Assembly: GCF_000949135.2 (NCBI RefSeq)
Contig: NZ_JTAN02000021.1
Location: forward strand, 1,054,001 to 1,118,000
Length of the DNA stretch: 64,000 nucleotides
DNA from: Burkholderia sp. USMB20
GTDB lineage: Bacteria; Pseudomonadota; Gammaproteobacteria; Burkholderiales; Burkholderiaceae
Direction of reading: 5' to 3'
Shown: positions 31,655-51,119 of the stretch, in pieces
How the letters are laid out: each line of letters opens with the position of its first letter
Numbering within the stretch: the stretch's first letter is position 1
The notes under the pieces: generated by a model
Told to the model about the DNA's origin: nothing
Seen by the model: only the letters and a program-made list of their open reading frames with translations
Database searches by the model: none
Translations under genes and position numbers: made by a program

Positions 31655-32269
31655 TCAACGCAAGCCCGTCGGCACCTGTCCGGGCAGCGAGCCGCCCGGA
31701 AAACCGGACAGGCTCGGCGCACTGGCCGGCCGCGCCGGCGCCGCCGGCGACGCTTCGTCAGCCGATGCGGCCATACCCGGTGCGAGGTAAAGAAACTTCC
31801 ATTGCCGATAGGTTTCGAGGCCCTCGAAGTCCCTGTATCGATCCGGAAATCCCGCGCGCTTGATCGGCGCGCCATCCGAGCTGCTGGATACGCCGTAGAA
31901 CCGGTCGGCCCGCCACAGGAACGACCAGTCGTTCTTGCCGCTGACCGGATCCGGATATGCGCGGCGCAGATGATGCATGGGCGTGGCAAAGCGCGTATCG
32001 TCCAGCAGGTCGTCGACCGTTTGCGGATATACGCGCCCGACACGGTAGTACGCGACGATGGCCCTGCGGTACTGATCGCCGACGAACAGCAGTTGCCGCT
32101 CCTGTTCGCGGCGCCGCTGCAGCGACCAGACATCCAGCGCGCCGGCCAGCGCGATCGACATCAGCATCAGCGCGATCAGCAGCGCGAGCAGCACGAGCCC
32201 GCGCTGCCGCCCGCCGCGCAGGCGCGCATGCATCGCACGCGCGCGCGCGGCCCGGCCGGACCGGCTCAT
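31655..32269 (-). CDS. Atypical minor pseudopilin (GspK-like in lacking Glu5)
   Basis: A 204-residue pseudopilin-like protein and the last gene of the cluster. The N-terminal helix follows a basic leader ending QRG, then LVLLALLIALMLMSIALAG, but position +1 is Leu rather than Phe and the conserved Glu at +5 is Ala. Loss of Glu5 is a hallmark of tip-located minor pseudopilins such as GspK. The globular part (residues 60-170) has pilin-like VGDQYRRAIVAYYR and YPDPVSGKNDW blocks and ends in a Pro/Ala-rich tail. ATG 32269 overlaps the stop of the preceding pseudopilin gene (ATGA). Confidence 0.75.
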   Translation of the reverse strand: MSRSGRAARARAMHARLRGGRQRGLVLLALLIALMLMSIALAGALDVWSLQRRREQERQLLFVGDQYRRAIVAYYRVGRVYPQTVDDLLDDTRFATPMHHLRRAYPDPVSGKNDWSFLWRADRFYGVSSSSDGAPIKRAGFPDRYRDFEGLETYRQWKFLYLAPGMAASADEASPAAPARPASAPSLSGFPGGSLPGQVPTGLR

Positions 32270-32682
32270 TTCACCGCCCCGGCCACGCCCGCCGTTCCCG
32301 CCGTTCCCGCCACGCCCGGCGGCGCGCCTTGCACACCGCTCGCGGGCCCCACATCGTAGACGCCCGGCTTGGTGTCGTCCGGCGATGCGATCGTCGCCCA
32401 TTTGTCGTCGCCGTTCACCGGATCGACCGGAACCGCGCGCAAGTAGTGCTTCGCGACCAGTTCGTCGAGCGTGTCGGGGTATTGCCCGTTGTCACCGTAA
32501 TACTGGTCGATCGCATTGCGCATCACCGCGAGGTTCTGCCGCCGCACCTGTTCCTTCCCGCGCTCGATGCTGTGCATGTAGCGCGGCACGGCCAAGGTCA
32601 GAAGCAGCCCGATGATGGCCATCACGACCACGATTTCGATCAGCGTAAAGCCGCGGATCCTGCGCATGCGAGCGGGTTTCAT
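32266..32682 (-). CDS. Type II secretion/pilus pseudopilin (GspG-like)
   Basis: A 138-residue pseudopilin. The prepilin peptidase site RIRG|FTLIEIVVVMAIIGLLLT has the Gly-1, Phe+1 and Glu+5 residues, followed by LAVPRYMHSIERGKEQVRRQNL and a QYYGDNGQYPDTLDEL block typical of major-pseudopilin folds (compare the GspG at 41.1 kb). It ends in a Gly/Ala/Val-rich tail. The leader is only about 11 residues. It is followed by, and overlaps, the last gene of the cluster. Confidence 0.88.
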   Translation of the reverse strand: MKPARMRRIRGFTLIEIVVVMAIIGLLLTLAVPRYMHSIERGKEQVRRQNLAVMRNAIDQYYGDNGQYPDTLDELVAKHYLRAVPVDPVNGDDKWATIASPDDTKPGVYDVGPASGVQGAPPGVAGTAGTAGVAGAVK

Positions 32683-32691
32683 GATGAACCG

Positions 32692-33225
32692 TCACCATTG
32701 TTTGTACGGAATGCCGTTGATGCCGACGCGAGCGGATTTCGAGGTCACGTCGAACACGTCCTTGCCGGGCTCCATGCCGGCAGGAGCCGCGTCGGCCGAC
32801 GGGTCCGGCGGCGTGCCGTACGCGCGCACATCCCAGGTGTCCTCGGCCGGCGTATCAGGATCGCCGGCGAAGAACGGATCGCGCGGCACGCGGCGCAGGA
32901 ACGTCATCATGCCGCCCTTCGGGTCGCGGACGTTCTTCACGCCCGTCACGAGCACGGCCAGCGACGGCGGATAGCCGGACGCTTCCGCCTCCTTTTCGAT
33001 CTGCCCCGCATCGCTCGCATCCTTGTACGCATCGAGCGCCGTGCGAATCTCGCGCAACGCGGCACTCAGCTCCTGCTCCTTCTGACGCTGCACGATCAGT
33101 TCGGAGAACGGCATGATCGCGAGCGCGAGGATCGACACGAGCGCGAGCGTGATGACCATCTCGATCAACGTGAAGCCGCGCCGGCCGACGCGGCCAATGC
33201 GAGGCGCTGCGCGGCGGGCGTTCAC
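32692..33225 (-). CDS. Type II secretion/pilus pseudopilin
   Basis: A 177-residue pseudopilin with cleavage site GRRG|FTLIEMVITLALVSILALA, containing Phe+1 and Glu+5. The following helix IVQRQKEQELSAALREIRTALDAYKDAS is unusually long and charged, and the C-terminal domain contains RRVPRDPFF..PDTPAEDTWDVRAY, resembling GspG/GspH-type proteins. The start is GTG 33225. It lies three bases after the stop codon that the secretin gene would have if its tail frameshifts are repaired, supporting translational coupling. Confidence 0.85.
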   Translation of the reverse strand: MNARRAAPRIGRVGRRGFTLIEMVITLALVSILALAIMPFSELIVQRQKEQELSAALREIRTALDAYKDASDAGQIEKEAEASGYPPSLAVLVTGVKNVRDPKGGMMTFLRRVPRDPFFAGDPDTPAEDTWDVRAYGTPPDPSADAAPAGMEPGKDVFDVTSKSARVGINGIPYKQW

Positions 33226-33228
33226 GGC

Positions 33229-33666
33229 TCACTTCCCGATCGGGCGAAGCGGGTTTTCGTTCGGGATATCGCCCGCCGGCATCTGCAGCGTCGGAGCGGG
33301 CGACGCCGGCGCGGCGGCCGGCGCATTGGCCGCCGCGGCGCCTGCTCGGCCGGTGCCGGCGACGCAACCGGCGTCACGGTGGTGCCCGGCGCGGGCGCCA
33401 CTTCATTGCCGCCGCGCGGCGCCTGCGCCGCGCCGCAGCCGGCTGCTCCGCCGCGGCGGCCCGGGCCGGCGCGGGCAATCCCGGCTGAGACCTCGAAAAC
33501 CGCCGCCGTACGGGTCGGGCGCGGCGTCGTGCGCGGTGCGGCCGGCAGCTGCCCGAACGCGCCGCTCTGCGGCGATGGCTGCGCACGGTTCGCCGCGGCC
33601 TCCAGCGGCGACGGCGCGCCGCCCGACGTCCCGCCGCCACGCTGCCCGGAACGACCTTCGCCTCCG
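33229..33666 (-). other. Scrambled 3' part of the secretin gene (apparent multiple frameshifts)
   Basis: Plausible protein sequence jumps between all three frames here. The secretin frame turns Arg-rich after KVVPGS. A second frame gives PSPLEAAANRAQPSPQSGAFG, then a third AAPDPYGGGF, the first frame again GLPAPARAAAAEQPAAA, the second APAPGTTVTPVASPAPA, and the third APTLQMPAGDIPNENPLRPIGK ending at a stop (33229-33231). The flanks are clean. Several single-base indels in one very GC-rich stretch suggest sequence error or a decayed tail. Confidence 0.6.
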
Positions 33667-35557
33667 GCGCCGCGGGGGCCTTCGCCTCTGGCGCCGCCGG
33701 CGCCTTCGCGTCCGTCGCCGCGGGCGCCTCCGCATTCAGCGCCACCGGGTCGAGTCGCAACTGGTCGGCATGCACGTTGACGTCGGTGCCCGACCACACT
33801 TCCTGCGTGTCCGCATCCGCCGCAACCTGCGGGCGGACGATATGCGGCGTGATCTGCAGCACGATCTCGGTCTTCTTGTGATCGCCGCCGTGATCCGAGA
33901 ACAGGCGGCCGAGCACCGGCAACTGGCCAAGGCCCGGCACCTTGTTCGCGTTGCGGCGGTCCTCGTCCGAGATCAGGCCGCCCATGATCTGCGTTTCGCC
34001 GTCCCGAAGCCGCAGGCTGGTCGACGCACTGCGCGTGCCGATCTGATACGCGAGCGAACTCAGCCCCTGCGAGTTGCCGCTCGAGATCGTGTTGGTGATG
34101 TTGCTGACTTCGAGATTCAGCTTGATGCCGACGTCGCCGTCGCGATAAACCTGCGGCTCGACCTCGAGCTTGATGCCCACGTCGAGGTACTGGATCATCT
34201 GCGTAAATGACGGGCCGCTGGTGCTCGGCGTGCTCGAGCTCGAAATCACCGGCACCTTGTCGCCGATCATGATGCGCGCCTTCTCCTTGTTGCGCGCGCG
34301 GATGCGCGGGCTCGCGAGGAGGTTCGCGTCGGTGTCGGTCAGCTTGAAGTCCGCGGTGGCCGACAGGCCGCTCACGTTCAGCGCATTGATCGGCAGATGA
34401 TGCAGCACGCCCCAGGTATCGGCCGAGCTCGGCGTCGACACCGTAAACGAGTTGGGCCAGTTGATGCCGAGTTGCGATATCCGGTCGTGCGATACCTCCA
34501 GCACCTCGACCTCGAGCATCACCTCCGGCTCCGGCAAGTCCTGGGCGGTGATCATTTCCTCGGCGACCTTGATCGTGTCCGGCGTGCCGCGGATCGTCAC
34601 CGAGTTCGCGCGCTCGTCGATCACGGCCTCCTTCACCTTCAGCAGGCTCTTCAGCAGCGACTGGATCTGCTTCGCATCGACGTTCGACAGCTGGAACGTG
34701 CGCACCTTGAGCTCCTGGTATTCGAGCTCCTTGGCCGGCGTCGCCGGGTAGATGAACAGCGTGTTCGCATTCATCTGCTTCTTGTCGAGCTGGTTCTGCA
34801 ACAGGATCATGTCGACCGTGTCCTGCAGCGACGCGTTCTGCACGAAGATCGTCGTCTTCAGGTCGGCGCGCACGTCGCGATCGAAAATGACGTTCAGCCC
34901 GGACGTCCGCGACAAGGCCTCGAACACCATCCGCACGTTCGCGTCGCGGAACTGCAGCGACACCGGCGTGCGCATGATCGACGACGCCGCGAGCTTGTCG
35001 TCGCGGTCCGCGTGTTGCTGGCGGCGCTTTTCGTCGAGTTCCGCCTGCATCCGCATCGCCATCGCGTTGGCCGGATCCTCGACCAGCACGCGATGCACGC
35101 GTTCGGCGGCCTGCGTGTACGAACCGCGCTTCATCATGCGGTCCGCTTCCTGCAGGATCGCGAGATGCTTGCGGTCCTGGTCGATCATCGCGCCGATCCG
35201 GCGCGCGCGCTCGCTGGTCGGATCGAGCTGCTTCGCCATGTAGACGGAGCGCGCCGCGTCGTCGAATTCGTTCTGCTGACGAAACGCGTCCGCGTTGTCG
35301 AGCAGCTGGGCGACCGAGTCGTTGCGCTCGTGCAACGCGTCGATCTTCACCTGCGCATTGGTCGGATCGTCCTGAAGGTTCGGCACATGCGCGCAGCCGC
35401 CGCATGCGAGCAGCGCCACGGCGATCGCCAGCGCGCGTTGCGTCGCGCAGCGGGGCGCCGGTGCGGGTCGCGCACCGGCCGGGGTGACGGAGCCAAGGCG
35501 TGTCGACGGGCCGCCGTCCCCGTTGCGGCGCACATTCCGTGTCAGTACGGTTTCCAT
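33374..35557 (-). CDS. gspD: Secretin of type II secretion/pilus system (GspD-like), frameshifted 3' end
   Basis: Outer-membrane secretin forming the exit channel. As read it is 727 residues. A lipoprotein-like signal ends LLAC (Cys52). Residues ~70-170 contain TPR-like repeats, then N-domains (FRDANVRMVFEALSRTSGLNVIFDRDV, TLFIYPATPAKELEYQELKVRTFQL) and the secretin core with VEVLEVSHDRISQLGINWP, DANLLASPRIRARNKEKARIMIGDKVPV and LRDGETQIMGGLISDEDRRNANKVPGLGQLPVLGRLF. The TPR region before the N-domains is not standard for GspD. After about residue 640 the frame degrades to Arg-rich sequence; the likely true stop is at 33229. The core is complete, so the product may still function. Confidence 0.87.
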   Translation of the reverse strand: METVLTRNVRRNGDGGPSTRLGSVTPAGARPAPAPRCATQRALAIAVALLACGGCAHVPNLQDDPTNAQVKIDALHERNDSVAQLLDNADAFRQQNEFDDAARSVYMAKQLDPTSERARRIGAMIDQDRKHLAILQEADRMMKRGSYTQAAERVHRVLVEDPANAMAMRMQAELDEKRRQQHADRDDKLAASSIMRTPVSLQFRDANVRMVFEALSRTSGLNVIFDRDVRADLKTTIFVQNASLQDTVDMILLQNQLDKKQMNANTLFIYPATPAKELEYQELKVRTFQLSNVDAKQIQSLLKSLLKVKEAVIDERANSVTIRGTPDTIKVAEEMITAQDLPEPEVMLEVEVLEVSHDRISQLGINWPNSFTVSTPSSADTWGVLHHLPINALNVSGLSATADFKLTDTDANLLASPRIRARNKEKARIMIGDKVPVISSSSTPSTSGPSFTQMIQYLDVGIKLEVEPQVYRDGDVGIKLNLEVSNITNTISSGNSQGLSSLAYQIGTRSASTSLRLRDGETQIMGGLISDEDRRNANKVPGLGQLPVLGRLFSDHGGDHKKTEIVLQITPHIVRPQVAADADTQEVWSGTDVNVHADQLRLDPVALNAEAPAATDAKAPAAPEAKAPAAPEAKVVPGSVAAGRRAARRRRWRPRRTVRSHRRRAARSGSCRPHRARRRARPVRRRFSRSQPGLPAPARAAAAEQPAAARRRRRAAAMKWRPRRAPP

Positions 35558-36199
35558 TTACTTTCCTTCCACTGAAATGGGCACCATCTGGATCTGGTTC
35601 AGCGGCAGATAGGTGAGCACCACGTTCGCCTCGGACACCGACTCGACGCGATACTGGCTGTCGATCACATCGCCCGGCGAAACGATCAGCAACTGGTCTC
35701 CGTTGCCGAGAAACACTTGCGGCTTCGCCGACTTGGCATCCTGCTGGCCGAGATAGACGAACGGCACCGGCGGCGCGGTCGGCGGCGCCGGACGCGTTTC
35801 GGGCGGCGGCGGCACGACGGGCGGCGGCGGCAGCCATGACGACGCCGTGAAGGGATCGTGCGCAGCTTCGACGGACACGGGCGCACGCAATGCGGCGAGC
35901 TGTTCCCGCGCGGTCGCCGCCGCGTCATGCGGCGCGGGTACGTCATGCGCCGCGGGCAACGACGCGGGCGCAGGCGCGGCGGCATGCGAGGCCGCCGCAA
36001 GGCCTGCGCGTGCGCGTGCCGGCGCGGGCGCCACGCGCGCACCGTCGCGATGGACGATGCCGCTTGCCGCGGCCGGTGCCGGCTGCTGCATCGCCGCCAC
36101 CAGCACGCGATATCCGGTACCGGCGACGACGAGGCAGCCCAGCACGAGCACAAGCACGAGTCGATTGCGCGAAGCGGGTTTGATCACGGCGGAGATCAT
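35558..36199 (-). CDS. Inner-membrane protein, PilP/GspC-like
   Basis: A 213-residue bitopic protein. A short cytoplasmic N-terminus and a single helix (RLVLVLVLGCLVVAGTGYRVLVA) lead into a long Ala/Pro-rich periplasmic linker with a polyproline stretch (PPPPVVPPPPETRPAP). The C-terminal small domain (FVYLGQQDAKSAKPQVFLGNGDQLLIVSPGDVIDSQYRVESVSEANVVLTYLPLNQIQMV) has the HR/PilP-type beta fold. Such proteins connect the inner-membrane platform to the secretin, whose gene follows at once. It overlaps the previous gene by ATGA. I cannot choose between the GspC and PilP names. Confidence 0.78.
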   Translation of the reverse strand: MISAVIKPASRNRLVLVLVLGCLVVAGTGYRVLVAAMQQPAPAAASGIVHRDGARVAPAPARARAGLAAASHAAAPAPASLPAAHDVPAPHDAAATAREQLAALRAPVSVEAAHDPFTASSWLPPPPVVPPPPETRPAPPTAPPVPFVYLGQQDAKSAKPQVFLGNGDQLLIVSPGDVIDSQYRVESVSEANVVLTYLPLNQIQMVPISVEGK

Positions 36200-36762
36200 G
36201 GCTGGGCGCTCCGATAGACGAGTTCGAAACGAACCCGCGCGTCGAGAATGCTGCTGCCCACCGCCGGACGCTCGACGTGGATTTCCTGCAGCGCCGCGTT
36301 CGGCACGTGGTTCAGCACCGATGCGAGAAAATGCCGGATCGCGCCGTACTGATCCTTCACGGGCAGCATCACCTGGTAGCGCGTGAAGCGCGCCCCCGAC
36401 TCGGTCGTCATCTGGTACTCGGCGGAGCCGAGCGCCAGATGGCTGTCGCGCGCCTGCTCGAAGATCGACGCGATGTCGTCCGCGCTTTGCGAAAAGCGCG
36501 GAAAGAGCGCCGGCAACGTGTCGAGCATCGTCGCGTCCGCCGCCGTGCCGCGCACGTCGGCCGGACGCTGGCCGCGTGCGGCGCGCGCGACGCCCGCCGG
36601 AACCTGCATCGCGCGCGTGTCGGCCTCCACGCCGGCGAGCGCCGCATACGTGATGCCCGCGGCACCGAGCATCAGGATCCCGGCGAGCCCCGGCAGACCG
36701 AATGCGCGCCGCCACGCGAACCGAAGCGTGAGCAGGCGGTCCGCGAAACGATCGGCTTTCAT
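36196..36762 (-). CDS. Inner-membrane platform protein, PilO/GspM-like
   Basis: A 188-residue bitopic protein. A basic N-terminus (residues 1-22) and one membrane helix (LAGILMLGAAGITYAALAGV) precede a periplasmic domain with a helical stretch (MLDTLPALFPRFSQSADDIASIFEQAR) and a ferredoxin-like alpha/beta part (YQVMLPVKDQYGAIRHFLASVLNHVPNAALQEIHVER). That is the layout of PilO and GspM. It overlaps its neighbours on both sides by ATGA, so it is co-translated with the PilN- and PilP-like proteins. Confidence 0.72.
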   Translation of the reverse strand: MKADRFADRLLTLRFAWRRAFGLPGLAGILMLGAAGITYAALAGVEADTRAMQVPAGVARAARGQRPADVRGTAADATMLDTLPALFPRFSQSADDIASIFEQARDSHLALGSAEYQMTTESGARFTRYQVMLPVKDQYGAIRHFLASVLNHVPNAALQEIHVERPAVGSSILDARVRFELVYRSAQP

Positions 36763-37289
36763 GATTTCCTCCAGACGGCCGTGATCTGGAAACGCACCGG
36801 CTTTCCCGCCACGTTCTCCTCGACGAGGTGGCCGTTGAGCGTCGCCTCGCGCAGCACGTCGCTCGTCTGCAAGTACTTCAGGTACGCGATCATCGCGTCC
36901 GGGTCCTTCGCTTCGGCCGTGATGCGAATCTGGCCCTGTGCCGGGTTCTGGTCGATGCCGATCAGTGCGACGTCATGGCCCGGATAGTCTTCGACGATCG
37001 AGAAGAGCGTCTGCCACGGCACGGTCAGTTCGCGCAGCACGGCCTGGCTCTGCTTTTCCGCGAGCCGGGCGGCCGCGGTCGGCGGCGGCTTCACAACGTG
37101 TTGTTGCGCGAACGTGCGATGCTGAACGAGCGCCAGCGCGTCCCGGATGCGATCGTTCTCCGCATACGCGTGCCAGAGCCGGACGGCGCACGCGCCCCAC
37201 AGCAGCGCGGCGACGCCGAGCAGGATCGCGCCGCTCACGCCGATACGGGCGCGGCGCCGGCAAAAATCGATGTCGAGCGTGCGGCTCAT
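36759..37289 (-). CDS. Inner-membrane platform protein, PilN-like
   Basis: A 176-residue bitopic protein with an N-terminal cytoplasmic segment (MSRTLDIDFCRRRARIG), one membrane helix (VSGAILLGVAALLWGACAVRLW), a coiled stretch, and a periplasmic domain with LTVPWQTLFSIVEDYPGHDVALIGIDQNPAQGQIRITAEAKDPDAMIAYLKYLQ. This is the PilN / fimbrial-assembly fold. The N-terminus of PilN normally contacts PilM, and the gene before it is PilM-like. ATG 37289 overlaps that stop (ATGA). Confidence 0.76.
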   Translation of the reverse strand: MSRTLDIDFCRRRARIGVSGAILLGVAALLWGACAVRLWHAYAENDRIRDALALVQHRTFAQQHVVKPPPTAAARLAEKQSQAVLRELTVPWQTLFSIVEDYPGHDVALIGIDQNPAQGQIRITAEAKDPDAMIAYLKYLQTSDVLREATLNGHLVEENVAGKPVRFQITAVWRKS

Positions 37290-38152
37290 GATGCGTACTC
37301 CAGCAACCGGCGCGCAGGCGAACCGTCGAGCGCCGCGCGGCCCGGCAGCACGGCCGCGGCAAAACGCGCCTCGAACGGCGCGGCATCCGTGTCGACGCCG
37401 CACAGATAGACCTTGCAGTCGTCGCGCGTCAGGCCCGTGCGCGTCGCCGAGCGCTCGAACAGCTGCTCGGCGAGTTCGGCAAGCCTCGCCGCATCGCCGG
37501 ACTCGCCCGGAAAGAGGCGCTGCGCGTCGTACGCGGTCCACTCGCCGCGCTCGATCATGACCGCCTGCAGCAACGCCTCGCCGACGACGAGCAGCATCGC
37601 GTCGCCGTCCGGCTTCACCGCAACCCGATCGAGCGTCTCCGGAAGTCCCGCGCGCAGGCAGCGGATGCGGACGTCGCCGGCTGCGCCCGTCCCGAGAATG
37701 CCGTCGTACAGCGTGCGCGGCAGCGCGCTGGCAAAGAGCACACGGCCGCCGCGCCGCACGTCGAAGCGCGTGACCAGCGACTCGGCGGCGACCCCGTAGG
37801 TGTCGGAGAAATGCGCGAGCGCGATGTCCTCGAGCTCGCGCGCGTGCAGCGCGCGGAAGTCGCCGCGCAGGATCGCATGGCAACACCAGAAATCGTCGAG
37901 CACGACGTGCGCGCCGCGCTTGGGCGGCCGCTTCGCGTTGCCGTCGCTGCCGGCCGTCGCGGCCAGCGCGGCACCCAGCGCGTCGAGCACCCCCGTCTCG
38001 CTCCCGAACCGTTCGTCGGGGATGACGACGCTGAGCGGATCGGCGGCGAACCCGCTCCGGCCCGGCCGCCACGGTGCGCGCGGGCGGATGCCGACGACGA
38101 TCTCGCGCGTGCCGACGCCGATCGCGAGCCGATCATTCGACCATGGTGACAC
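37286..38152 (-). CDS. Cytoplasmic platform protein, PilM/GspL-like
   Basis: A 288-residue protein probably of actin-like fold that recruits the ATPase to the membrane platform. Visible pieces are an N-terminal strand region (DRLAIGVGTREIVVGIR), VVLDDFWCCHAILRGDF and a KPDGDAMLLVVGEALLQAVMIERGEW segment. There is no transmembrane helix, which fits PilM better than full-length GspL. The GTG start at 38152 lies inside the end of the gspE-like gene (20-base overlap). Assignment rests on position between GspE and PilN-like genes and on weak sequence features. Confidence 0.65.
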   Translation of the reverse strand: MSPWSNDRLAIGVGTREIVVGIRPRAPWRPGRSGFAADPLSVVIPDERFGSETGVLDALGAALAATAGSDGNAKRPPKRGAHVVLDDFWCCHAILRGDFRALHARELEDIALAHFSDTYGVAAESLVTRFDVRRGGRVLFASALPRTLYDGILGTGAAGDVRIRCLRAGLPETLDRVAVKPDGDAMLLVVGEALLQAVMIERGEWTAYDAQRLFPGESGDAARLAELAEQLFERSATRTGLTRDDCKVYLCGVDTDAAPFEARFAAAVLPGRAALDGSPARRLLEYAS

Positions 38153-39851
38153 GATTGATCTCCTCGAGCGTCGTTTCGCCGCGCCTCACCAGGTCGATCG
38201 CCGATGCGCGCAACGTCGTCATGCCGTAGCGCAGCGCCGCCGCCTTGATGTGCCCGAGCGGCGCGCGCTCCGACAGCAGTTGCCGCAGTTCGTCGTTCAT
38301 GCGCAGCGCCTCCGCGATCGCGCGCCGGCCGCGATAGCCGCTGCCGCGGCACATCGCGCACCCGGTACCGCGGCGAAACAGGTAGCTGCCGGCCGTGTCG
38401 GGGTCGATGCCCGAGCGGGCGAGCGCATCCGCGTCGACCTTGTCCTCGTCCAGGCAGTCCGGACAGCACTGGCGCAGCAGCCGCTGCGCAATCACGCCGT
38501 TCAGCGCCGATACGAAGCTGTACGGATCGACCTCCATGTTCGTGAAACGGCCGATCACGTCGAACACGTTGTTCGCATGCACGGTGGTGAACACCTGGTG
38601 GCCGGTCAGCGCGGCCTGCACGGCGATCTGCGCGGTTTCGGGATCGCGGATTTCGCCGACCATGATCTTGTCCGGATCGTGCCGCAGGATCGACCGCAAG
38701 CCGCGCGCGAACGTCAGGCCCTTCGCCTCGTTGACCGGTATCTGCAGGATCTCGCCGAGCTGGTATTCGACCGGATCCTCGATCGTCACGATCTTCTCGA
38801 GCCCGTTGTTGATTTCGGTGAGGATTGCATAAAGCGTCGTGGTCTTGCCGCTGCCGGTGGGGCCCGTGACGAGCAGCATCCCGTACGGCATCGACGCGAC
38901 CGACCGCATGAAGCGCGTGTCGGCGGGCTGGAACCCCAGCGCCTCGAGCGTCAGGCCGCCCGACGCCTGGGACAGCTGGTAGCGGTCGAGAATCCGCAAC
39001 ACCGCGTCCTCGCCGAACTGGTTCGGCATGATCGATACGCGAAAATCGATCTCACGTCCGGCGTACATCGCCTTGAAGCGCCCGTCCTGCGGAATGCGGC
39101 GCTCCGCGATATCGAGCTCGGAGATCACCTTCACGCGCGACAGCACCTGGTCCGCGACGTCGCGGCCCTCGACGCGCCCGACCACCGTCAGCACGCCATC
39201 GACCCGGCACTTGATCATCAAGCCGTTCGCCCGGCATTCGAGGTGGATGTCGCTCGCCAGCATCTTGAGCGCGTCGTAGATCGTCGAATTGAGCAGCCGC
39301 ACCACCGGGCTGTCGTCGCTGCTGATGCCCTGCAGCGTCAGGGCGAGCGACGCCGGATCGGGCGCATTCTGGATCGGATCGTCGAACGCGAGCGAATCCA
39401 TCGCGCGGATGTCCTTCTCGCGCACGGCGAGATAGGCGCCCAGGTCGCCCGCGCTCGCGAGCGCCCATCCGTACGGCAGCGCGGGGTGCGCACGCATCCG
39501 GTGCTCGATCCAGCCGCGCGTGCGCGCATCGAGCGGATCGGCGATCGCGAACAGCAGCGCGCCGCAATCGGGATCGCGCAGGCACACGCAAAGGCGCGCC
39601 GTTGCCTCGACGAACGGCACCAGCTCGAAATCCGGCACCAGGCGATTCAGTTCACGCATGCCGATCGGCTTCATCCGGAATTGCGCCGCGAGCCGCTCGC
39701 GCATCTCGTCCGCGCCCAGCGCCGTCTGCGCCGTCAATGCCTCGAGCGCGCGCAGGCCCGAACCGTGCCGTTCGCCGAGCGTGCGCAGCAGGTCGCGCAG
39801 TTCGGCGTCCGCGTCGGGCGGGTTGTCGGGGGAGGATGTGAGGGTGTCCAC
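38133..39851 (-). CDS. gspE: Type II secretion/pilus assembly ATPase GspE
   Basis: Hexameric cytoplasmic ATPase, 572 residues, driving pseudopilus assembly. It has the N-terminal GspE/PilB MshEN-type domain, then Walker A GPTGSGKTT (330-338), Asp box TIEDPVEYQL (356-365), Walker B IMVGEIRDPETAQIA (396-410), His box LTGHQVFTTVHANN (415-428), and the zinc-binding CX2C pairs C463/C466 and C498/C501. All catalytic elements are intact. The start is GTG 39851, with GGAG upstream. The sequence is of the GspE/PilB/MshE assembly type rather than the PilT retraction type; no PilT-like gene is present. Confidence 0.94.
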   Translation of the reverse strand: MDTLTSSPDNPPDADAELRDLLRTLGERHGSGLRALEALTAQTALGADEMRERLAAQFRMKPIGMRELNRLVPDFELVPFVEATARLCVCLRDPDCGALLFAIADPLDARTRGWIEHRMRAHPALPYGWALASAGDLGAYLAVREKDIRAMDSLAFDDPIQNAPDPASLALTLQGISSDDSPVVRLLNSTIYDALKMLASDIHLECRANGLMIKCRVDGVLTVVGRVEGRDVADQVLSRVKVISELDIAERRIPQDGRFKAMYAGREIDFRVSIMPNQFGEDAVLRILDRYQLSQASGGLTLEALGFQPADTRFMRSVASMPYGMLLVTGPTGSGKTTTLYAILTEINNGLEKIVTIEDPVEYQLGEILQIPVNEAKGLTFARGLRSILRHDPDKIMVGEIRDPETAQIAVQAALTGHQVFTTVHANNVFDVIGRFTNMEVDPYSFVSALNGVIAQRLLRQCCPDCLDEDKVDADALARSGIDPDTAGSYLFRRGTGCAMCRGSGYRGRRAIAEALRMNDELRQLLSERAPLGHIKAAALRYGMTTLRASAIDLVRRGETTLEEINRVTMVE

Positions 39852-39869
39852 GCGCGTCTCCGGGGCGGC

Positions 39870-41072
39870 CTACTGAATGCTCGACGCGATCTCGAAGATC
39901 GGCATGTACATCAACACGACGATGCCGCCGATCACCACGCCGATCACGATCATCATCATGGGTTCGATCAGGCGCGAAATCAGGTCGATCGTGCGCGACA
40001 CCTGCGCTTCCTGAAACGCGGCGATCCGGTCGAGGACGGGCCCGAGGCCGCCGGTCTTCTCGGCCACCGTCAGCAGCCGGTAGCCGATTGCATTCGCGAG
40101 ACCGGCCTGCTGGAACGCGTCGGACATCTTCGCGCCGTTGCGGACCTGCTGCAGCGCGCGCGCCAGCGCGGCCTGGTCCGCGCGGCCGACCAGGCCGCGT
40201 GCGAGATCGAACGCGCGAATGGCGGGAATGCCGCCGTCGACCAGCATCGCCGTCGTGCGATAGAACTGCGACTGGCGAAACACGCGGAAGTGTTGCCCGA
40301 TGCCGGGCAGCGCCAGCAGCCGATCCGCGAGCCAGATGCGCAGAGCCGGCCGCCGCAGCGCGATACCGGCGGCCACGGCCAGCACCGCGAGGCCGCCGGC
40401 CAGCTCGGTGCCGTGCGCGTGCACCATGCCGCCCCACGCCATCAGCAGCCGCGACATCAGCGGCAGCTCGCGTCCGCTGTGTTCGAGCAGCGTCGCGAAG
40501 CGCGGCACCACGAAGCCGAGCAGGAACAGCACGACGGCCGCACCGACAAACAGCAGCACCGTCGGGTAGATCGCCGCCGACACGACCCGCGCGCGCAACT
40601 CGCGCAGCGTCGCGCTGTTGTGCGAATAGCGCGTCAGGCTGTCGGCCAGGCCGCCGGTCTGCTCGCTCGCCTTCACGCACGCCACCAGCACCGGCGGAAA
40701 GATCGGGCTCGCATGCTCGAGCGCCGCCGACAGCGACTGCCCTTCCTCGAGCTGCCGCAGCAGATCGCGGCACACCTGCGCGGACGCCTCGCGCCGCGCG
40801 TTGCCGCCGAGCGTGCGCAACGCGTCGACGAGGCCCACACCCGCATCGAGCAGCGCCGCCAGTTCGCGCGCGAACATGTCGACGTCGAACCGCGCACGCG
40901 GCATGCCGAGCCGGTTCGCGCCGCGCCGCTGCCGCCCGGCGTCCGTGCTGACCGATACGACGCGAAGGCCCCGCGCACGCGCGAGCGAGGCCGCGTTCGC
41001 CGGCGAATCGCTGTCGATGCGAAGCGTCTGCACCGAGCCGCTCGTATCGAATACATGCAGCACGAATTTCAC
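39870..41072 (-). CDS. gspF: Inner-membrane platform protein GspF
   Basis: A 400-residue polytopic inner-membrane protein with the duplicated T2SSF domain: first copy MFARELAALLDAGVGLVDALRTL (about 67-89), second copy FYRTTAMLVDGGIPAIRAFDLA (about 272-293). Three membrane segments include AAIYPTVLLFVGAAVVLFLLGFVVP and the C-terminal IEPMMMIVIGVVIGGIVVLMYMPIF. It works with GspE in extruding the pseudopilus. The GTG start at 41072 is supported by AGGAG seven bases upstream; an open frame continuing further upstream is only the shadow of gspG. Confidence 0.93.
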   Translation of the reverse strand: MKFVLHVFDTSGSVQTLRIDSDSPANAASLARARGLRVVSVSTDAGRQRRGANRLGMPRARFDVDMFARELAALLDAGVGLVDALRTLGGNARREASAQVCRDLLRQLEEGQSLSAALEHASPIFPPVLVACVKASEQTGGLADSLTRYSHNSATLRELRARVVSAAIYPTVLLFVGAAVVLFLLGFVVPRFATLLEHSGRELPLMSRLLMAWGGMVHAHGTELAGGLAVLAVAAGIALRRPALRIWLADRLLALPGIGQHFRVFRQSQFYRTTAMLVDGGIPAIRAFDLARGLVGRADQAALARALQQVRNGAKMSDAFQQAGLANAIGYRLLTVAEKTGGLGPVLDRIAAFQEAQVSRTIDLISRLIEPMMMIVIGVVIGGIVVLMYMPIFEIASSIQ

Positions 41073-41128
41073 GTCGGGTCTCCTTGCGAACTGCTCACGA
41101 CGCGCGCCGCGGTCGCGGCCACGCGCCC

Positions 41129-41611
41129 CTACCACGACGAGATCGTCACGTTCTCGCCGGTACCGCCGCCGCGTCCGTCCTTGCCGAGCGAGAACAGGTC
41201 GTAGTCGCCGTGCTCGCCCGGTGAACGATACTGATAGGGCCGGTCCCACGGATCCGCCGGGACGGCCTTCTGCAGATAGGGGCCGCTCCACCGCGATGCG
41301 CTTTGCGGCTTGTTCACGAGCGCATCCAGCCCTTCCTCGGTCGTCGGATAGGTACCGACGTCGAGCCGGTATTGATCCAGCGCCTGACCGAGCGACACGA
41401 TCTGCGCACGCGCGATCTTGACGTTGGACTTGCCGACCTGTTCGAAATACCGTGGCGCCACGAGCCCTGCCAGCAACCCGATGATGACCATCACGACCAG
41501 CAGCTCGAGCAGCGTGAAGCCGCGACTCGCACACGCGCGGCACACGCGTCGTTCGTCACGCTGCCGCCGGCCCGGCGCGCCGGCCGGGAACGAGAACGAT
41601 TCGTGGCTCAC
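41129..41611 (-). CDS. gspG: Major pseudopilin GspG
   Basis: Major pseudopilin, about 160 residues. The prepilin peptidase site SRG|FTLLELLVVMVIIGLLAGLVAPRYFEQVGKS is the GspG consensus, followed by AQIVSLGQALDQYRLDVGTYPTTEEGLDALV and WSGPYLQKAVPADPWDRPYQYRSPGEHGDYDLFSLGKDGRGGG, the calcium-binding GspG fold. GTG 41611 is preferred because GGGAGG lies five bases upstream; a GTG at 41677 would give a longer leader. The leader before the cleavage site is about 30 residues either way, longer than usual. It is the first gene of the eleven-gene cluster. Confidence 0.92.
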   Translation of the reverse strand: MSHESFSFPAGAPGRRQRDERRVCRACASRGFTLLELLVVMVIIGLLAGLVAPRYFEQVGKSNVKIARAQIVSLGQALDQYRLDVGTYPTTEEGLDALVNKPQSASRWSGPYLQKAVPADPWDRPYQYRSPGEHGDYDLFSLGKDGRGGGTGENVTISSW

Positions 41612-41720
41612 GGCTGCCTCCCTGTATCGACCCGCGGCACCGGCGCCGCCGATGCCGTTGATTGCATTCTTGTTCACGCCGGTACGGGTCAGAAGTAGGG
41701 AGTGCCGTCCATCCCCATGG

Positions 41721-42465: not shown

Positions 42466-43503
42466 CTAGTTGGACGCGACGACATCGCGATAGGCCGCGA
42501 GCAGCTCGGTCGGCGTCGCGAAGCCGTCGATACGCAGCCACGGCTGGCCCGGCGCGGCCCGCACGAACGTCACCGGCGTGTGGTTCATCTTGTCGCCGCG
42601 ATACACGTTGAACGCGCGTTGCGCGGCGACGCTCGCGTCGACGGTACCGGTGTAGTGCTGCCATTCGGGGCCGGCTTCGAAGCGTGCCGCGTAGGTCCTG
42701 AGCCGCTCGGGCGTGTCCGCCTCCGGATCGATCGAGATCGACATGATGTGCACCTTGTCGCGATCGGCGCCGAGTTCGCCCTGCAGCTGCTCGAGCGTCT
42801 GGCTGATCATCGGGCAGATGGTCGTGCAACTGGTGTAGATGAATGTCAGGATCACCGGCCGGCCGTCGTCCAGTTCCTTGACCAGCGAGACGGTCCGGCC
42901 GTCGTCGCGCACGAGCTGGACCGACGGCTCGGCATACTGGACCATCGTGTGCACGGTGCCCGGCATCACGGCGTGATGATGCATGTGCATGCCGGCGGCT
43001 TCGGTCGCGCCGTCGGTCATCTGCGAGGCGGCCTTGTCCGCCGGTTTTGCGGCGGGTGCGGCCGGTGCGGGCGCCGCGGGGCTATCGTCGGCGGGCGCCG
43101 CGGCGGGCTGCGTCATGGGCTCGGTAGCGGGCTCCGTCGCCTGCTCCGCGGCGGGCTGCATCGCGGGTTCGGTAGCCGGCTCCATCGCGTGCTCCGCGGA
43201 GGGCTGCATCGCGGGCTCGGTGGCCGGCTCCATCGCGTGCTCCGCGGCGTGCGTCGACGCGCTGTCGGCGGCGTTTCCGGCGGGATCTTCGCCACCGTTC
43301 TGCATGGTCATTCCCGTCATACTCTCGACGGCATCCGGCGCGGCATTCTGCGTGACGCTCGTGTTCGCGGCGGCGTTTTCCGCGGCCGCACCGCCGGCGT
43401 TCTCGATCGCGCTGCCGTCGGGCGCACACCATGCGGGCGTCGCGGCAAGCGCAACGCCCGCGACCACGAGTGCGCCCATCGTCGATCTTCCGATCCTGTT
43501 CAT
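42466..43503 (-). CDS. SCO1/SenC-family copper-type protein with Met/Glu/Pro repeats
   Basis: A 345-residue exported thioredoxin-fold protein. The signal peptide is cleaved near AWCA (residue 27). Residues 87-134 hold three copies of a 16-residue repeat (AEHAMEPATEPAMQPA and variants), followed by a Met/His-rich stretch GMHMHHHAVM. The SCO domain starts near 185, with the copper-binding C226-x3-C230 (TSCTTICPM) and H308 (KMNHTPVTFV). SCO proteins deliver copper to cytochrome oxidase or act as thiol-redox proteins. ATG 43503 has GGGAGG upstream. Its placement among regulators of the secretion-like cluster is unusual, as no oxidase gene is near. Confidence 0.9.
   Translation of the reverse strand: MNRIGRSTMGALVVAGVALAATPAWCAPDGSAIENAGGAAAENAAANTSVTQNAAPDAVESMTGMTMQNGGEDPAGNAADSASTHAAEHAMEPATEPAMQPSAEHAMEPATEPAMQPAAEQATEPATEPMTQPAAAPADDSPAAPAPAAPAAKPADKAASQMTDGATEAAGMHMHHHAVMPGTVHTMVQYAEPSVQLVRDDGRTVSLVKELDDGRPVILTFIYTSCTTICPMISQTLEQLQGELGADRDKVHIMSISIDPEADTPERLRTYAARFEAGPEWQHYTGTVDASVAAQRAFNVYRGDKMNHTPVTFVRAAPGQPWLRIDGFATPTELLAAYRDVVASN
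43102..43245 (-). repeat. Three in-frame 48-bp repeats in the SCO-family gene
   Basis: Codons 87-134 form three 16-codon units: AEHAMEPATEPAMQPS, AEHAMEPATEPAMQPA and AEQATEPATEPMTQPA. The first two are nearly identical, as after recent duplication. Confidence 0.85.
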
Positions 43504-43765: not shown

Positions 43766-44884
43766 ATGACTGAACGCCAGCCCGAAGGGCTACGGATCAG
43801 GCTGCTCGATCTGATCGATGCGATGCGCAAGCTGCGCAGTGCGCTGCGTACCGATGATCGCCGCAGCGCTGTCGTCACCGATGCGCGTGGAGCGGCGCTC
43901 GCCATTCTCGCCGACGACGGCACCTTCGTATCGGTCAATCGCAGTGCCGCGGCGCTGTTCGGCTATACGGCCGCCGAACTCGTCGGCCGGCATCTGTCCG
44001 ACCTGGCGCCCGACGACGCCCACGCCGAGCTGGCGAGCGAGCTGTCCACGAGCGTCGCCCTTCAGCATCATTCGTTTACTGCGATGCTCAGCGGGCGAAG
44101 CGGCCATCCCGCGCGATTCGTCGTACATCAGCAGGCACTTCCCGACGCGCACCTGTCGCTGACGCTGTTCGAGGAACCGTCGACGCCCGAGCCCGAACGG
44201 CGCGGCGCCGCGGCGAACGATGCGGGCGTGCATGCCTGCAACACTTATCTCCTGATGGGCCAGCAGAAGGAACGGCATCGGCTTGCCGCGGAATTGCACG
44301 ACGGGCTCGGCCAGGCGCTGACGCTCATCAAGCTGATGAACGAGGACGCGCTCATGCGCATTCGCCGCGGCGAGATCGCCGACGCGACGACGCTGCTCGA
44401 CGACGCCGTGCTGCGCATCCGCGAGACGATCGGCGAAGTCCGCCAGATCTGCGGCGAACTGAGGCCGCCGATACTCGACAAGCTCGGACTGCCGGCCGCG
44501 CTCGCTTCGCTGTGCCGGCGCATCGAGCGCGACGCGGACCCGCTGTCGGTGGAGTTCAATTGCGACGTCGACGACGACGACATACCGGATCATCTGAAGG
44601 CCGACGCGTTCAGAGTCGCGCAGGAGGCACTCCACAACATCGTCAAGCATGCACAGGCCACCGAGATCGTGCTCAGCCTGCAACACGATGCGGGCGGCCT
44701 GCTGCTGACGATCGACGACAACGGCGTCGGCTACGAGCGTCGCCCGCTTGCGACGGACGACGCGCGCACGGCGGGGCTCGGCCTGATCGGCATGCAGCAC
44801 CGCGTCGAGGCGCACGGCGGCACGTTTGCGATCCAGTCGTCCGCCGCGACGGGTACGCGCGTCTCGGCAACCTGGCCGCTCTGA
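43766..44884 (+). CDS. Soluble PAS-containing NarL-type sensor histidine kinase
   Basis: A 372-residue kinase without any membrane helix. A PAS domain covers about residues 40-135 (ILADDGTFVSVNRSAAALFGYTAAELVGRHLSDLAP). A HisKA_3 dimerisation domain has the phospho-accepting H178 in RLAAELHDGLGQALTLIK, and an HATPase_c domain has VAQEALHNIVKHAQA, IDDNGVGYE and GLGLIGMQHRVEAHGG. This HPK7 architecture pairs with NarL/LuxR-type response regulators, two of which flank it. ATG 43766 (GGGAG five bases upstream) was chosen over 43718, which lacks a ribosome site. It presumably senses a cytoplasmic signal. Confidence 0.92.
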   Translation: MTERQPEGLRIRLLDLIDAMRKLRSALRTDDRRSAVVTDARGAALAILADDGTFVSVNRSAAALFGYTAAELVGRHLSDLAPDDAHAELASELSTSVALQHHSFTAMLSGRSGHPARFVVHQQALPDAHLSLTLFEEPSTPEPERRGAAANDAGVHACNTYLLMGQQKERHRLAAELHDGLGQALTLIKLMNEDALMRIRRGEIADATTLLDDAVLRIRETIGEVRQICGELRPPILDKLGLPAALASLCRRIERDADPLSVEFNCDVDDDDIPDHLKADAFRVAQEALHNIVKHAQATEIVLSLQHDAGGLLLTIDDNGVGYERRPLATDDARTAGLGLIGMQHRVEAHGGTFAIQSSAATGTRVSATWPL

Positions 44885-44897: not shown

Positions 44898-45677
44898 TCA
44901 GCCCTTCACGCCGCCCGCCGGATAGTCGTCCAGCCGCGCGACGGCGCCTGCCGCCTGCACGCCGTCGGCGACCGCGTGCGTCGACACCTCGTCCACGTTC
45001 GGCTCCGCGCATTTCGCCGCGAGTGTCGTCAACAGACCCATGTTCATCGCGACGAGCACCAGCTCCGTCAGATTCGCGAGATGGAGCTTGTGCATCATGC
45101 TTGCCCGATACTTCTCGATCGTCTTCGGGCTCAGGTTCAGGTACTGACCGACCTGCCGGTTGGTGCGCCCTTCCGCGATCAGTTTCAGCACGCTGCGTTC
45201 GCGTGCGGTCAGGATGTCCCACGCCTTTTTCGGCGCGGGCATTTCGCGACCGCTGACGAACGAGTCGACCATGTAGCCGTATACGTCGGCACTCAGGTGC
45301 TTCTTCCCCTGCATGACCATGCGCATCGCGAGCAGCAATTCGTCGAACGAAACGTCCTTGAGCACGTAGCCGTCGACACCCGCGCGCAGCGCCTCGCGCA
45401 CATACTCTTCGCTCTGGTGCACCGTGAGCGCGACGATCCGGACGGACGGCGTTCGACGCTTGATCGTCGCGCTCGCATCGATGCCGTTCATCCCGCGCAT
45501 CGACAGATCCATCAGGATCAGGTCCGGCGCGAGCGTCATTGCCTGATGGCATGCCTCCTTGCCGTCCCGCGCTTCGCCGACGACTTCGTAATCGCCTTGT
45601 GCGCAAAGCATCGACCGGAGCCCGTTTCTCAGCAGATCGTGATCTTCTGCAATTATCACGCGATATTTAGTATTCAC
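44898..45677 (-). CDS. NarL/LuxR-family response regulator (paralogue 2)
   Basis: A 259-residue response regulator. The receiver domain (KYRVIIAEDHDLLRNGLRSML) has D57 in PDLILMDLSMRG and K in YVLKD. The LuxR-type helix-turn-helix reads LTARERSVLKLIAEGRTNRQVGQYLNLSPKTIEKYRASMMHKL. A C-terminal extension of about 45 residues, ending DDYPAGGVKG, is absent from paralogue 1. The start is GTG 45677; a longer open frame upstream is not supported. It is convergent with the kinase gene (13-bp gap). The extensive similarity to the regulator at 41.8 kb indicates a local duplication. Confidence 0.92.
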   Translation of the reverse strand: MNTKYRVIIAEDHDLLRNGLRSMLCAQGDYEVVGEARDGKEACHQAMTLAPDLILMDLSMRGMNGIDASATIKRRTPSVRIVALTVHQSEEYVREALRAGVDGYVLKDVSFDELLLAMRMVMQGKKHLSADVYGYMVDSFVSGREMPAPKKAWDILTARERSVLKLIAEGRTNRQVGQYLNLSPKTIEKYRASMMHKLHLANLTELVLVAMNMGLLTTLAAKCAEPNVDEVSTHAVADGVQAAGAVARLDDYPAGGVKG

Positions 45678-46210: not shown

Positions 46211-46849
46211 ATGCACTGCCAACCTTCGTCCGGATTACGAAAGACCATCATCGTCGCAGCATGCGCGGGAATCGGCTCGGCATGGTCGTGCGCCGCTCAC
46301 GCGCAGATATTCGGCATGGTGGCAAAGAACGGGGTCATCGTCCTGACCAACGTGCCCACTACGGTCAATCTGAAAGTGATCGTCGCGGCCGCGAGGCCGG
46401 CCGCCAGGCCGGCCGCATCCACGACGAAGCGTGTCGCGCCGAAACACGTCGTCGCGTCGTCGTTCGAGGACGTGATCGCCGAAGCGAGCCGGTCGTTCAA
46501 CGTTCCGCCCGAACTCCTTCGCGCCGTGATCGACGTCGAATCGGGATACAACCCGAAGGCGGTATCGGACAAAGGCGCGCTCGGGCTCATGCAACTGATG
46601 CCGGAAACGGCCCGGCGCTTCTCGGGCGGCGACATGTTCGATCCGCGCGCCAACGTGCTGACCGGCGCACGGTATCTGCGCTTCCTGCTCGACCTGTTCA
46701 AGGAAAACGTCGAACTCACGCTCGCTGCGTACAACGCCGGAGAGAATGCCGTGATTCGGGCCGGGTATCGCATCCCGGCGATGCCGCAGACGCGCGAGTA
46801 CGTGCCGCGCGTGCTCGCGCGCTACAAGCGGCTGCTCGCCGCGAATTGA
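46211..46849 (+). CDS. Exported lytic transglycosylase (SLT domain)
   Basis: A 212-residue periplasmic peptidoglycan-cleaving enzyme. The signal peptide is cleaved after AHA (residue 31). The SLT domain starts near residue 84, with catalytic E110 in AVIDVESGYNPKAVSDKGALGLMQLMPETARRF and the later ELTLAAYNAGENAV block, both classical for Slt/MltC-type enzymes. AGGAGG lies eight bases before ATG 46211. Small transglycosylases of this kind often accompany trans-envelope machines and open the wall for secretin or pilus assembly, which fits its position next to the type II-like cluster and its regulators (inference). Confidence 0.9.
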   Translation: MHCQPSSGLRKTIIVAACAGIGSAWSCAAHAQIFGMVAKNGVIVLTNVPTTVNLKVIVAAARPAARPAASTTKRVAPKHVVASSFEDVIAEASRSFNVPPELLRAVIDVESGYNPKAVSDKGALGLMQLMPETARRFSGGDMFDPRANVLTGARYLRFLLDLFKENVELTLAAYNAGENAVIRAGYRIPAMPQTREYVPRVLARYKRLLAAN

Positions 46850-47006: not shown

Positions 47007-47516
47007 TCATGGAAATGCCGGGACCGTCGGATCCTCTCCCTGCAGATGCGCATCCGTATGGTGAAGCCTGATCGCGTCTTCGATCTCGCGAACGCGGTCG
47101 GTCGGCACGTCGATCATCATCAGCAGCTCGCCGTGCTCGATGCCCTCCTCGAAACGCTTCAGGCGCGTGCTCGGCATGTCGATGCCGATCATCGTCGCCA
47201 CCCATGCGCCGAAGGCCGCGCCGAACAGCGTGATCGCCACGACGATGCCGCCGCCGATCGGCAAACCCGCGGGCTGGACCAGCAGCAGGATCAGCCCCAT
47301 CAGCATGCCGGTCGCAGAGCCGACCGCGGTGCCGCGCGCGAGCGACGGCAGCAGGTCGCTGCGTTGCACCAGCGTGGCTTCCGGCAAGTCGTCGCGCCAG
47401 ACATCGTGATTCGCGAGGCAATGGATATGTCGCCACTCGATTCGCAGCGACAGCAGCTCGCCGACGATCGACCGCGCGCATTGCGCCGTCGGCAACAGAA
47501 AATAGACGCGTCTCAT
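47007..47516 (-). CDS. Hypothetical membrane protein with glycine-rich helical hairpin
   Basis: A 169-residue protein. An N-terminal alpha/beta-like part (MRRVYFLLPTAQCARSIVGELLSLRIEWRHIHCLANHD) precedes two hydrophobic Gly-rich helices (GTAVGSATGMLMGLILLLVQPAG and GGIVVAITLFGAAFGAWVATMIGI) and a C-terminal soluble part ending LHHTDAHLQGEDPTVPAFP. The pattern resembles DUF1269/general-stress 17M-like proteins with a central membrane hairpin. ATG 47516 begins the conserved-looking sequence; the longer upstream frame is unlikely. It stands alone and its function is unknown. Confidence 0.7.
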   Translation of the reverse strand: MRRVYFLLPTAQCARSIVGELLSLRIEWRHIHCLANHDVWRDDLPEATLVQRSDLLPSLARGTAVGSATGMLMGLILLLVQPAGLPIGGGIVVAITLFGAAFGAWVATMIGIDMPSTRLKRFEEGIEHGELLMMIDVPTDRVREIEDAIRLHHTDAHLQGEDPTVPAFP

Positions 47517-48842: not shown

Positions 48843-48846
48843 GATG

Positions 48847-51057: not shown

Positions 51058-51105
51058 TCAAACTCCGACTAAGGGGAAACAGCCCCTACGCTCACTATGT
51101 TCGCT

Positions 51106-51119
51106 GCCCCCGAGGGGGC
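51106..51119. repeat. Intergenic hairpin GCCCCCGAGGGGGC
   Basis: A 14-bp near-perfect palindrome in the resB/cytochrome c4 gap, flanked by shorter inverted repeats (AGGGG/CCCCT at 51072-51086). Similar C-rich/G-rich hairpins occur in many Burkholderia intergenic regions. Confidence 0.6.

What the first reader, a model, noticed from the sequence alone, without database searches (positions are those of the whole stretch)
31655..41611. Eleven-gene type II secretion / type IV pilus hybrid with unusual composition
Seen: GspG, GspF, GspE, then PilM-, PilN-, PilO- and PilP-like proteins, a lipoprotein secretin with TPR-like repeats ahead of its N-domains, and three more pseudopilins (one lacking Phe+1 and Glu+5), nearly all overlapping by ATGA. 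Known: canonical gsp operons carry gspC-D-E-F-G-H-I-J-K-L-M-N, and T4P platform operons are pilM-N-O-P-Q. Here a GspG/E/F front end is joined to a PilMNOP-like platform, with no PilT retraction ATPase and no prepilin peptidase. I infer a separate, poorly classified secretion or short-pilus machine.
Basis: partly seen in the sequence, partly recalled or inferred. Interest (0 to 1): 0.75.

Follow-up and report, generated by a model that had tools for sequence, protein, structure and literature searches.

The report
Eleven-gene secretion machine beside copper oxidases
A Burkholderia chromosome carries an eleven-gene machine, a sister of the known type II secretion systems, that most likely pushes large copper-containing oxidases out of the cell; the machine looks like one already reported from a manganese-oxidizing Pseudomonas, so the locus is a new member of a little-studied kind rather than something wholly new.

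Summary
Their order (G-F-E-PilM-PilN-PilO-PilP-secretin-three pseudopilins) recurs in Beta- and Gammaproteobacteria. Trees of ATPase, platform and secretin put the family on one branch, apart from canonical GspE/F/D and PilB/C (caveats told). New here: in 37 genomes of the window's genus, the window-type ATPase and a distinctive multicopper oxidase occur in the same 11 and in none of the other 26, about 24 kb apart in the six with unbroken contigs; a distant genome, G282, has both too. The window lacks the oxidases because it passes from the module to the native cytochrome-c-biogenesis locus inside a ccsA-like gene that relatives hold twice: misassembly or recombination. The secretin is a lipoprotein with a TPR domain, perhaps a built-in pilotin. 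Elsewhere the family sits beside chitinase, RHS, subtilase or glucanase genes.

The parts
41129..41677 (-). G: major pseudopilin (GspG)
   Evidence: TIGR01710 176.3 bits, cut-off 88.85; Pfam T2SSG 4.6e-43
39870..41072 (-). F: inner-membrane platform protein (GspF/PilC type)
   Evidence: T2SSF 7.4e-49, two stretches; TIGR02120 255.8 under cut-off 424; own branch
38133..39851 (-). E: assembly ATPase (GspE/PilB type)
   Evidence: T2SSE 6.7e-118; GspE 459.5 under 630.25, PilB 445 under 675.65; own branch 100/100
37286..38152 (-). M: PilM-fold cytoplasmic protein
   Evidence: AlphaFold model pLDDT 89.5; PilM best match
36759..37289 (-). N: PilN-like inner-membrane protein
   Evidence: Pfam PilN in 22 of 24 family members at E up to 0.05
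36196..36762 (-). O: PilO/GspM-b-like inner-membrane protein
   Evidence: Pfam PilO 12 of 24, T2SSM_b 11 of 24, none for the window's own; PDB PilO 2.3e-5
35558..36199 (-). P: PilP-like (GspC-like position) protein
   Evidence: weak: TIGR03021 0.0048, PDB PilP 0.024; conserved position
33374..35557 (-). D: lipoprotein secretin with N-terminal TPR-type domain; C-terminal tail out of the frame kept in relatives
   Evidence: Secretin 1.4e-41, STN, Secretin_N; lipobox 44 of 51; TPR in 23 of 24 relatives, window fits their profile; frame
32692..33225 (-). X1: minor pseudopilin
   Evidence: N_methyl 9.8e-8; family HMM 245.8 bits
32266..32682 (-). X2: GspG-like second pseudopilin
   Evidence: N_methyl 3.8e-8, T2SSG 2.3e-4; family HMM 205.9 bits
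31655..32269 (-). X3: minor pseudopilin without Glu+5 (a GspK trait, recalled), here also without Phe+1
   Evidence: family alignment of 22; family HMM 229.6 bits
41762..42418 (-). LuxR-type response regulator, travels with the module
   Evidence: Pfam Response_reg, GerE; beside the machine in 11 of 11 system-bearing genomes of the genus
42466..43479 (-). SCO1/SenC copper chaperone, travels with the module
   Evidence: Pfam SCO1-SenC 4.4e-21; in the same 11 of 11; SCO1 in 24 of 92 loci overall
43823..44884 (+). PAS histidine kinase, travels with the module
   Evidence: Pfam PAS, HisKA_3, HATPase_c; in the same 11 of 11
44898..45611 (-). second LuxR-type response regulator
   Evidence: Pfam; in the same 11 of 11
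46316..46849 (+). lytic transglycosylase (SLT), possible wall-opening partner
   Evidence: Pfam SLT 1.5e-28; in the same 11 of 11; 19 of 92 loci overall; beside G in Pseudomonas
47007..47516 (-). small protein of unknown function kept in the module
   Evidence: in the same 11 of 11 genomes; not seen in L169 and L002
47652..48779 (-). ccsA-like cytochrome-c-assembly gene, present twice in relatives; here the window passes from module to native locus

Best explanation
It is a secretion machine of the type IV filament superfamily that works like a type II secretion system but belongs to its own lineage. The ATPase E, held by the PilM-fold protein M and platform F, drives polymerisation of a short periplasmic pseudopilus of G with X1-X3 at the tip; N, O and P link the platform to an outer-membrane secretin that brings its own lipid anchor and TPR domain, probably a built-in pilotin; the SLT enzyme may open the wall; prepilin peptidase comes from elsewhere in the genome. 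In this Burkholderia lineage the dedicated cargo is most likely a pair of multicopper oxidases with a very large Ig/cadherin-like protein, matured with SCO1-supplied copper, periplasmic cytochromes c and a ccsA-like factor, under two-component control. Shown: gene content, order, lineage, co-occurrence and linkage with the oxidases. Inferred: secretion, cargo, pilotin role, copper supply and metal-oxidizing function.
For: All eleven in order G-F-E-M-N-O-P-D-X1-X2-X3 in 36 of 80 fetched loci, another order in 5, E to X3 only in 15, ordered part-sets in 23 (many cut by contig ends), one other. One branch for E (100/100, all of 200 bootstrap trees), F (100) and D (99). Family-HMM score gaps among loci numbered above 90: E 657 or more against 505 or less (leaving out L110, a family member cut by its locus end, 525), F 400 against 275, D 616 against 134. 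Multicopper oxidase MCO2 at 75% identity or more in the same 11 of 37 genomes of the genus as the window-type E, 0 of the other 26 (1.2e-9 by simple count, kinship not corrected). MCO1, MCO2 and the big protein lie together in 6 of 6 fetched loci, about 24 kb from E. A genome of another family, G282, has the same trio on the other side of the machine, next to X3. In Pseudomonas the machine flanks mnxG (genes match the mnxG operon in PMC11409713). Multicopper-oxidase Pfam hits beside the system also in Glaciimonas, Sideroxydans, Nitrosospira and Ramlibacter records. Prepilin peptidase elsewhere in 12 of 12 genomes. TPR lipoproteins PilF and TadD pilot secretins (PMC10499894, passages).
Against: The window itself holds no oxidase. 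In a class-wide sample the oxidase trio is beside only 1 of 12 places, so it is not the general cargo; other subtypes stand beside chitinase (4 of 4 fetched loci) or an RHS protein (2 of 2). Linkage does not show transport. The window's secretin gene is out of frame at its C-terminus, and E of G282 is split over two frames. Two non-family ATPases, L146 and L148, also fall below both GspE and PilB cut-offs, so a missed cut-off alone does not make a separate system. The careful E tree warns that long branches meet at the family stem. hhalign against single E. coli GspL, GspM and GspC gave nothing. The 11 of 37 are one genus, so the independent events are few.
Confidence: 0.74

Rival explanations
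1. A short or long surface pilus (MSHA-like adhesin fibre) with G as pilin; the oxidases are unrelated neighbours.
For: PilMNOP-type platform; a TPR lipoprotein element recalls MshN and PilF; MSHA loci also lack a prepilin peptidase (PMC6668835 passage).
Against: G is a full GspG match and the secretin scores MshL 120.6, under the cut-off of 250.2; no second ATPase; neighbours include large exported enzymes.
Confidence: 0.1
2. A general secretion system whose substrate here is the neighbouring PhoX phosphatase (29481-31439).
For: Adjacent and convergent; the PhoX-type UxpB is cargo of an Xcp-type system in P. putida WCS358 (PMC4509608 passage).
Against: PhoX is in 35 of 37 genomes of the genus with or without the system and beside it in only 7 of the 11 system genomes.
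Confidence: 0.06
3. A decaying or silent locus in this strain: secretin tail out of frame and cargo cut off.
For: Secretin frame; the window's join at the ccsA-like gene.
Against: The other ten genes are open; the secretin domain ends before the frame change; the join lies in a gene that relatives hold twice, so it may be an assembly error.
Confidence: 0.1

Closest known systems
Xcm 'Gsp-related pathway' of Pseudomonas putida GB-1 (de Vrind et al. 2003; title and one citing passage seen, paper not seen)
   Same: A second T2SS-like locus in P. putida needed for export of the Mn-oxidizing factor (title); the family here sits around mnxG in Pseudomonas. A search of P. capeferrum 20A1 with F found three GspF/PilC-type proteins, one of this family, which fits Xcp, Xcm and pilC as told for WCS358.
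   Different: MnxG was not found in any of 37 genomes of the window's genus, which have another oxidase pair; identity of Xcm with this family is inferred, no Xcm sequence was compared.
Geobacter/Pelobacter Pul (OxpG) 'atypical' type II system (PMC3543383 section 18 part 1 seen; Mehta 2006 title only)
   Same: Pseudopilins PulG, OxpG and TklG, and a multicopper oxidase (OmpB) as cargo.
   Different: No Geobacter sequence was at hand; kinship untested.
Canonical type II secretion system (Gsp)
   Same: GspG at equivalog level, GspE/F/D homologues, no PilT.
   Different: E, F, D under cut-offs and on another branch; PilM- and PilN-like parts are separate genes; three further pseudopilin genes; secretin with TPR and one Secretin_N domain.
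Type IVa pilus (PilBCDMNOPQ)
   Same: PilM fold, PilN, PilO, weak PilP.
   Different: GspG-type major pilin, no second ATPase in the window, ATPase outside the PilB rows of the tree.

Membership tests
Canonical type II secretion system | GspE/GspF/GspD at equivalog level | tested here: not met
   459.5 under 630.25, 255.8 under 424, 181.5 under 351.35 bits; four canonical GspE controls pass
Canonical type II secretion system | GspG major pseudopilin | tested here: met
   176.3 over 88.85
[quoted passage not shown]
   two separate genes, M and N
Canonical type II secretion system | Core proteins inside the T2SS clade | tested here: not met
   own branch in E, F, D trees; sister group open
[quoted passage not shown]
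   cargo linkage only
Type IVa pilus | PilB at equivalog level and among PilB rows of the tree | tested here: not met
   445 under 675.65; outside PilB rows
Type IVa pilus | PilT retraction ATPase in the locus | tested here: not met
   one ATPase ORF of this kind in the window
Type IVa pilus | PilMNO platform | tested here: met
MSHA pilus | MshL secretin | tested here: not met
   120.6 under 250.2
Xcm pathway of P. putida | Orthologous machine linked to a Mn oxidase | tested here: inconclusive
   family flanks mnxG in Pseudomonas; no Xcm sequence compared
Geobacter Pul/OxpG system | Sequence kinship | not tested
   no Geobacter genome was reached

The most novel reading that the evidence does not exclude
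A class of its own beside T2SS and T4aP: a cargo-swapping exporter whose secretin carries its own lipid anchor and TPR pilotin, of which the Burkholderia branch exports a large extracellular copper-redox assembly (two multicopper oxidases, a 2,700-residue Ig-like scaffold and cytochromes) that oxidizes a metal such as manganese outside the cell, in a genus not noted for it (that last point recalled).
Probability: 0.3. Interest if true: 0.7.

Novelty: new member of a known kind. Interest (0 to 1): 0.45.

Why it matters
If right, a machine known by name from one manganese oxidizer is a widespread exporter with its own gene set, and its neighbours predict the cargo: multicopper oxidases here, chitinase, RHS proteins, subtilase or glucanase elsewhere. 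It gives Burkholderia relatives a testable extracellular metal-oxidizing module and shows a secretin with a TPR element in cis, a simple model for how pilotins work. It also warns that a duplicated gene can hide the cargo of a locus from anyone who reads one contig.
Full report
What is there. The window is a stretch of chromosome with 67% G+C. On the - strand from 41677 to 31655 lie eleven genes: G, F, E, M, N, O, P, D, X1, X2, X3. Four of the ten junctions are ATGA overlaps (M/N, N/O, O/P, X2/X3), E and M overlap by 20 bases, P and D abut; the rest have gaps. With family HMMs each gene is the top hit of its own model in the window; there is no second ATPase of this kind, and no prepilin peptidase by a probe that does find one in a control locus.

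What the proteins are. G passes the curated GspG model. E, F and D match GspE or PilB, GspF, and GspD or PilQ, but stay below the curated cut-offs, whereas four canonical GspE proteins from relatives pass; two other non-family ATPases of that test, L146 and L148, also miss both cut-offs. M has no sequence match, but its predicted structure (mean pLDDT 89.5) is an actin-like fold nearest to PilM. Only two columns of its family alignment are nearly invariant, so a conserved nucleotide site is doubtful; that is inference. N is PilN-like in 22 of 24 members at E up to 0.05. O matches PilO in 12 and T2SSM_b in 11 of 24, the window's own in neither. P is PilP-like only weakly. D has a lipobox-like motif (loose pattern) in 44 of 51 members and TPR matches between lipid anchor and N-domains in 23 of 24 relatives; the window's own stretch gives no Pfam TPR hit but fits the relatives' profile at 129.5 bits. 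D has one STN and one Secretin_N domain. X3 lacks Glu+5, a trait I recall for the tip pseudopilin GspK; most relatives keep Phe+1, the window does not.

Where it belongs. A scan of one genome per species returned 80 loci, the cap, with relatives of E. All eleven genes in the window's order are in 36 of 80, in another order in 5; 15 have E to X3 only (the Pseudomonas records among them), 23 an ordered part, many cut by contig ends, and one another layout. In a class-wide sample 11 of 369 genomes have the secretin at E 1e-40 or better. The ten genomes other than G001 give twelve places: seven with the full order (in G282 E is split over two frames), three with G moved to between X2 and X3, two incomplete. 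Trees of E (careful, 27 family rows and 20 others, 100/100), F (quick, 30 and 29, 100) and D (quick, 29 and 9, 99) put the family on one side of a branch. An earlier quick E tree had one outside row inside the family, on a branch of 2.46. The careful tree warns that long branches meet at the stem, so the sister group is open.

Accessory genes. In Pseudomonas sp. DTU12.3 the machine surrounds mnxG: G and F diverge from an SLT gene and a 1,974-residue multicopper oxidase, followed in one direction by further genes that match, in order, the published mnxG operon (beta-propeller, two SCO1, binding-protein/cytochrome c, SurA-like; PMC11409713, passages), then a response regulator and E-M-N-O-P-D-X1-X2-X3 (Pfam names of homologues; SurA named only from the paper). 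In the window an SLT, two response regulators, a histidine kinase and SCO1 stand before G. They stay with the machine in 11 of 11 system-bearing genomes of the genus, both in the 7 where it lies beside phoX and in the 4 where it lies elsewhere.

Cargo. Upstream in Paraburkholderia caribensis are a 2,744-residue open frame with Ig- and cadherin-like domains and two multicopper oxidases. The second oxidase has orthologues at 75% identity or more in 11 of 37 genomes of the window's genus, exactly the 11 with the window-type E (90% or more); the other 26 have at best weak local hits. By simple counting the chance is 1.2e-9; kinship is not corrected for. In 6 of 6 fetched loci both oxidases and the big protein lie together, about 24 kb from E on the same contig. 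In four drafts (G001, G003, G005, G016) the oxidase contig ends in the ccsA-like gene in which the machine's contig also ends; for the eleventh, G013, I saw no such link. In G282, of another family, the trio stands next to X3, on the other side of the machine. Elsewhere the family stands beside other exported enzymes: multicopper oxidases in Glaciimonas, Sideroxydans, Nitrosospira and Ramlibacter records, a GH2/GH64 protein in Pandoraea, a subtilase in G058, RHS and FG-GAP proteins on a Janthinobacterium plasmid. A 46-48% subtype in the genus stands beside a GH18 chitinase in 4 of 4 fetched loci, and a 51% subtype beside an RHS protein in 2 of 2. Against a universal oxidase cargo: in the class sample the trio is beside 1 of 12 places. 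PhoX is no specific partner.

Why the window hides it. Relatives have two ccsA-like genes, one in the module and one beside resB in the native cytochrome-c-biogenesis locus. Window 46008-48771 matches the module place and 47658-53047 the native place. In the six system genomes whose contigs run through, the two places are apart (0.9 Mb in G002); in the other five the machine's contig breaks in this gene. The window passes from one to the other. This is either an assembly join through a repeat of about 1.1 kb or a real recombination; the data cannot tell. The secretin's tail also departs from the frame that relatives keep open up to X1.

Mechanism and known kinds. Shown are content, order, lineage, co-occurrence and linkage. 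Inferred by homology are an E-driven pseudopilus and passage of folded cargo through D. TPR lipoproteins PilF and TadD pilot secretins (PMC10499894, passages), so a secretin with both anchor and TPR may pilot itself; this is my inference. PulL is a PilM-PilN fusion (PMC10191384, passage), so separate M and N may be the older state. The pathway needed for export of the Mn-oxidizing factor of P. putida (title), called Xcm in PMC4509608 (passage), is very likely this family: WCS358 is said there to have Xcp-type and Xcm loci and pilA, pilC, pilD genes, and a search of P. capeferrum 20A1 found three GspF/PilC-type proteins, one of this family. That WCS358 belongs to P. capeferrum is recalled. Geobacter's Pul system exports the multicopper oxidase OmpB with PulG, OxpG and TklG (PMC3543383, section 18 part 1). 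Neither of the two experimental papers was seen.

Verdict. A real member of a widespread, T2SS-like but separate lineage, probably already met in Pseudomonas under another name. The tie to a multicopper-oxidase module in this genus, the self-anchored TPR secretin and the swapping of cargo did not turn up as described together in my ten paper searches, which cover open-licence papers only.

Noticed in passing
47652-48779: The window passes from the secretion module to the native resB/ccs locus inside a ccsA-like gene that relatives carry twice at separate places: assembly chimera or recombination.
   Followed up: yes
33374-33650: The secretin's C-terminal tail reads out of the frame that close relatives keep open (ORFs of 777 and 785 aa reaching X1); it lies after the secretin domain.
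   Followed up: partly
L135 1243-4242, L136, L137, L138: A second subtype of the eleven-gene machine in the genus (46-48% in E) stands beside a GH18 chitinase in 4 of 4 fetched loci.
   Followed up: partly
L130 15551-17917, L131 12154-13512: A third subtype in the genus (51% in E) stands beside an RHS/TIG-repeat protein in 2 of 2 fetched loci.
   Followed up: partly
L210 (G282:C48): A genome of another family holds the whole machine with the oxidase trio next to X3; its ATPase gene is split over two frames.
   Followed up: partly
L170 (Janthinobacterium lividum plasmid p356839): The machine, with rearranged gene order, sits between two sets of FG-GAP plus RHS-repeat genes.
   Followed up: no
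L125 10670-12000; L043 17972-18871: In Pseudomonas records the cluster is followed by a CsgG-type curli export gene (12 loci), in L125 with a small protein before it.
   Followed up: no
L034: A metagenome bin labelled Bordetella parapertussis carries part of this machine; the label looks doubtful to me.
   Followed up: no
G308:C30, G346:C6, G090:C49: A variant with G between X2 and X3 and lower family scores, perhaps a further subtype.
   Followed up: no
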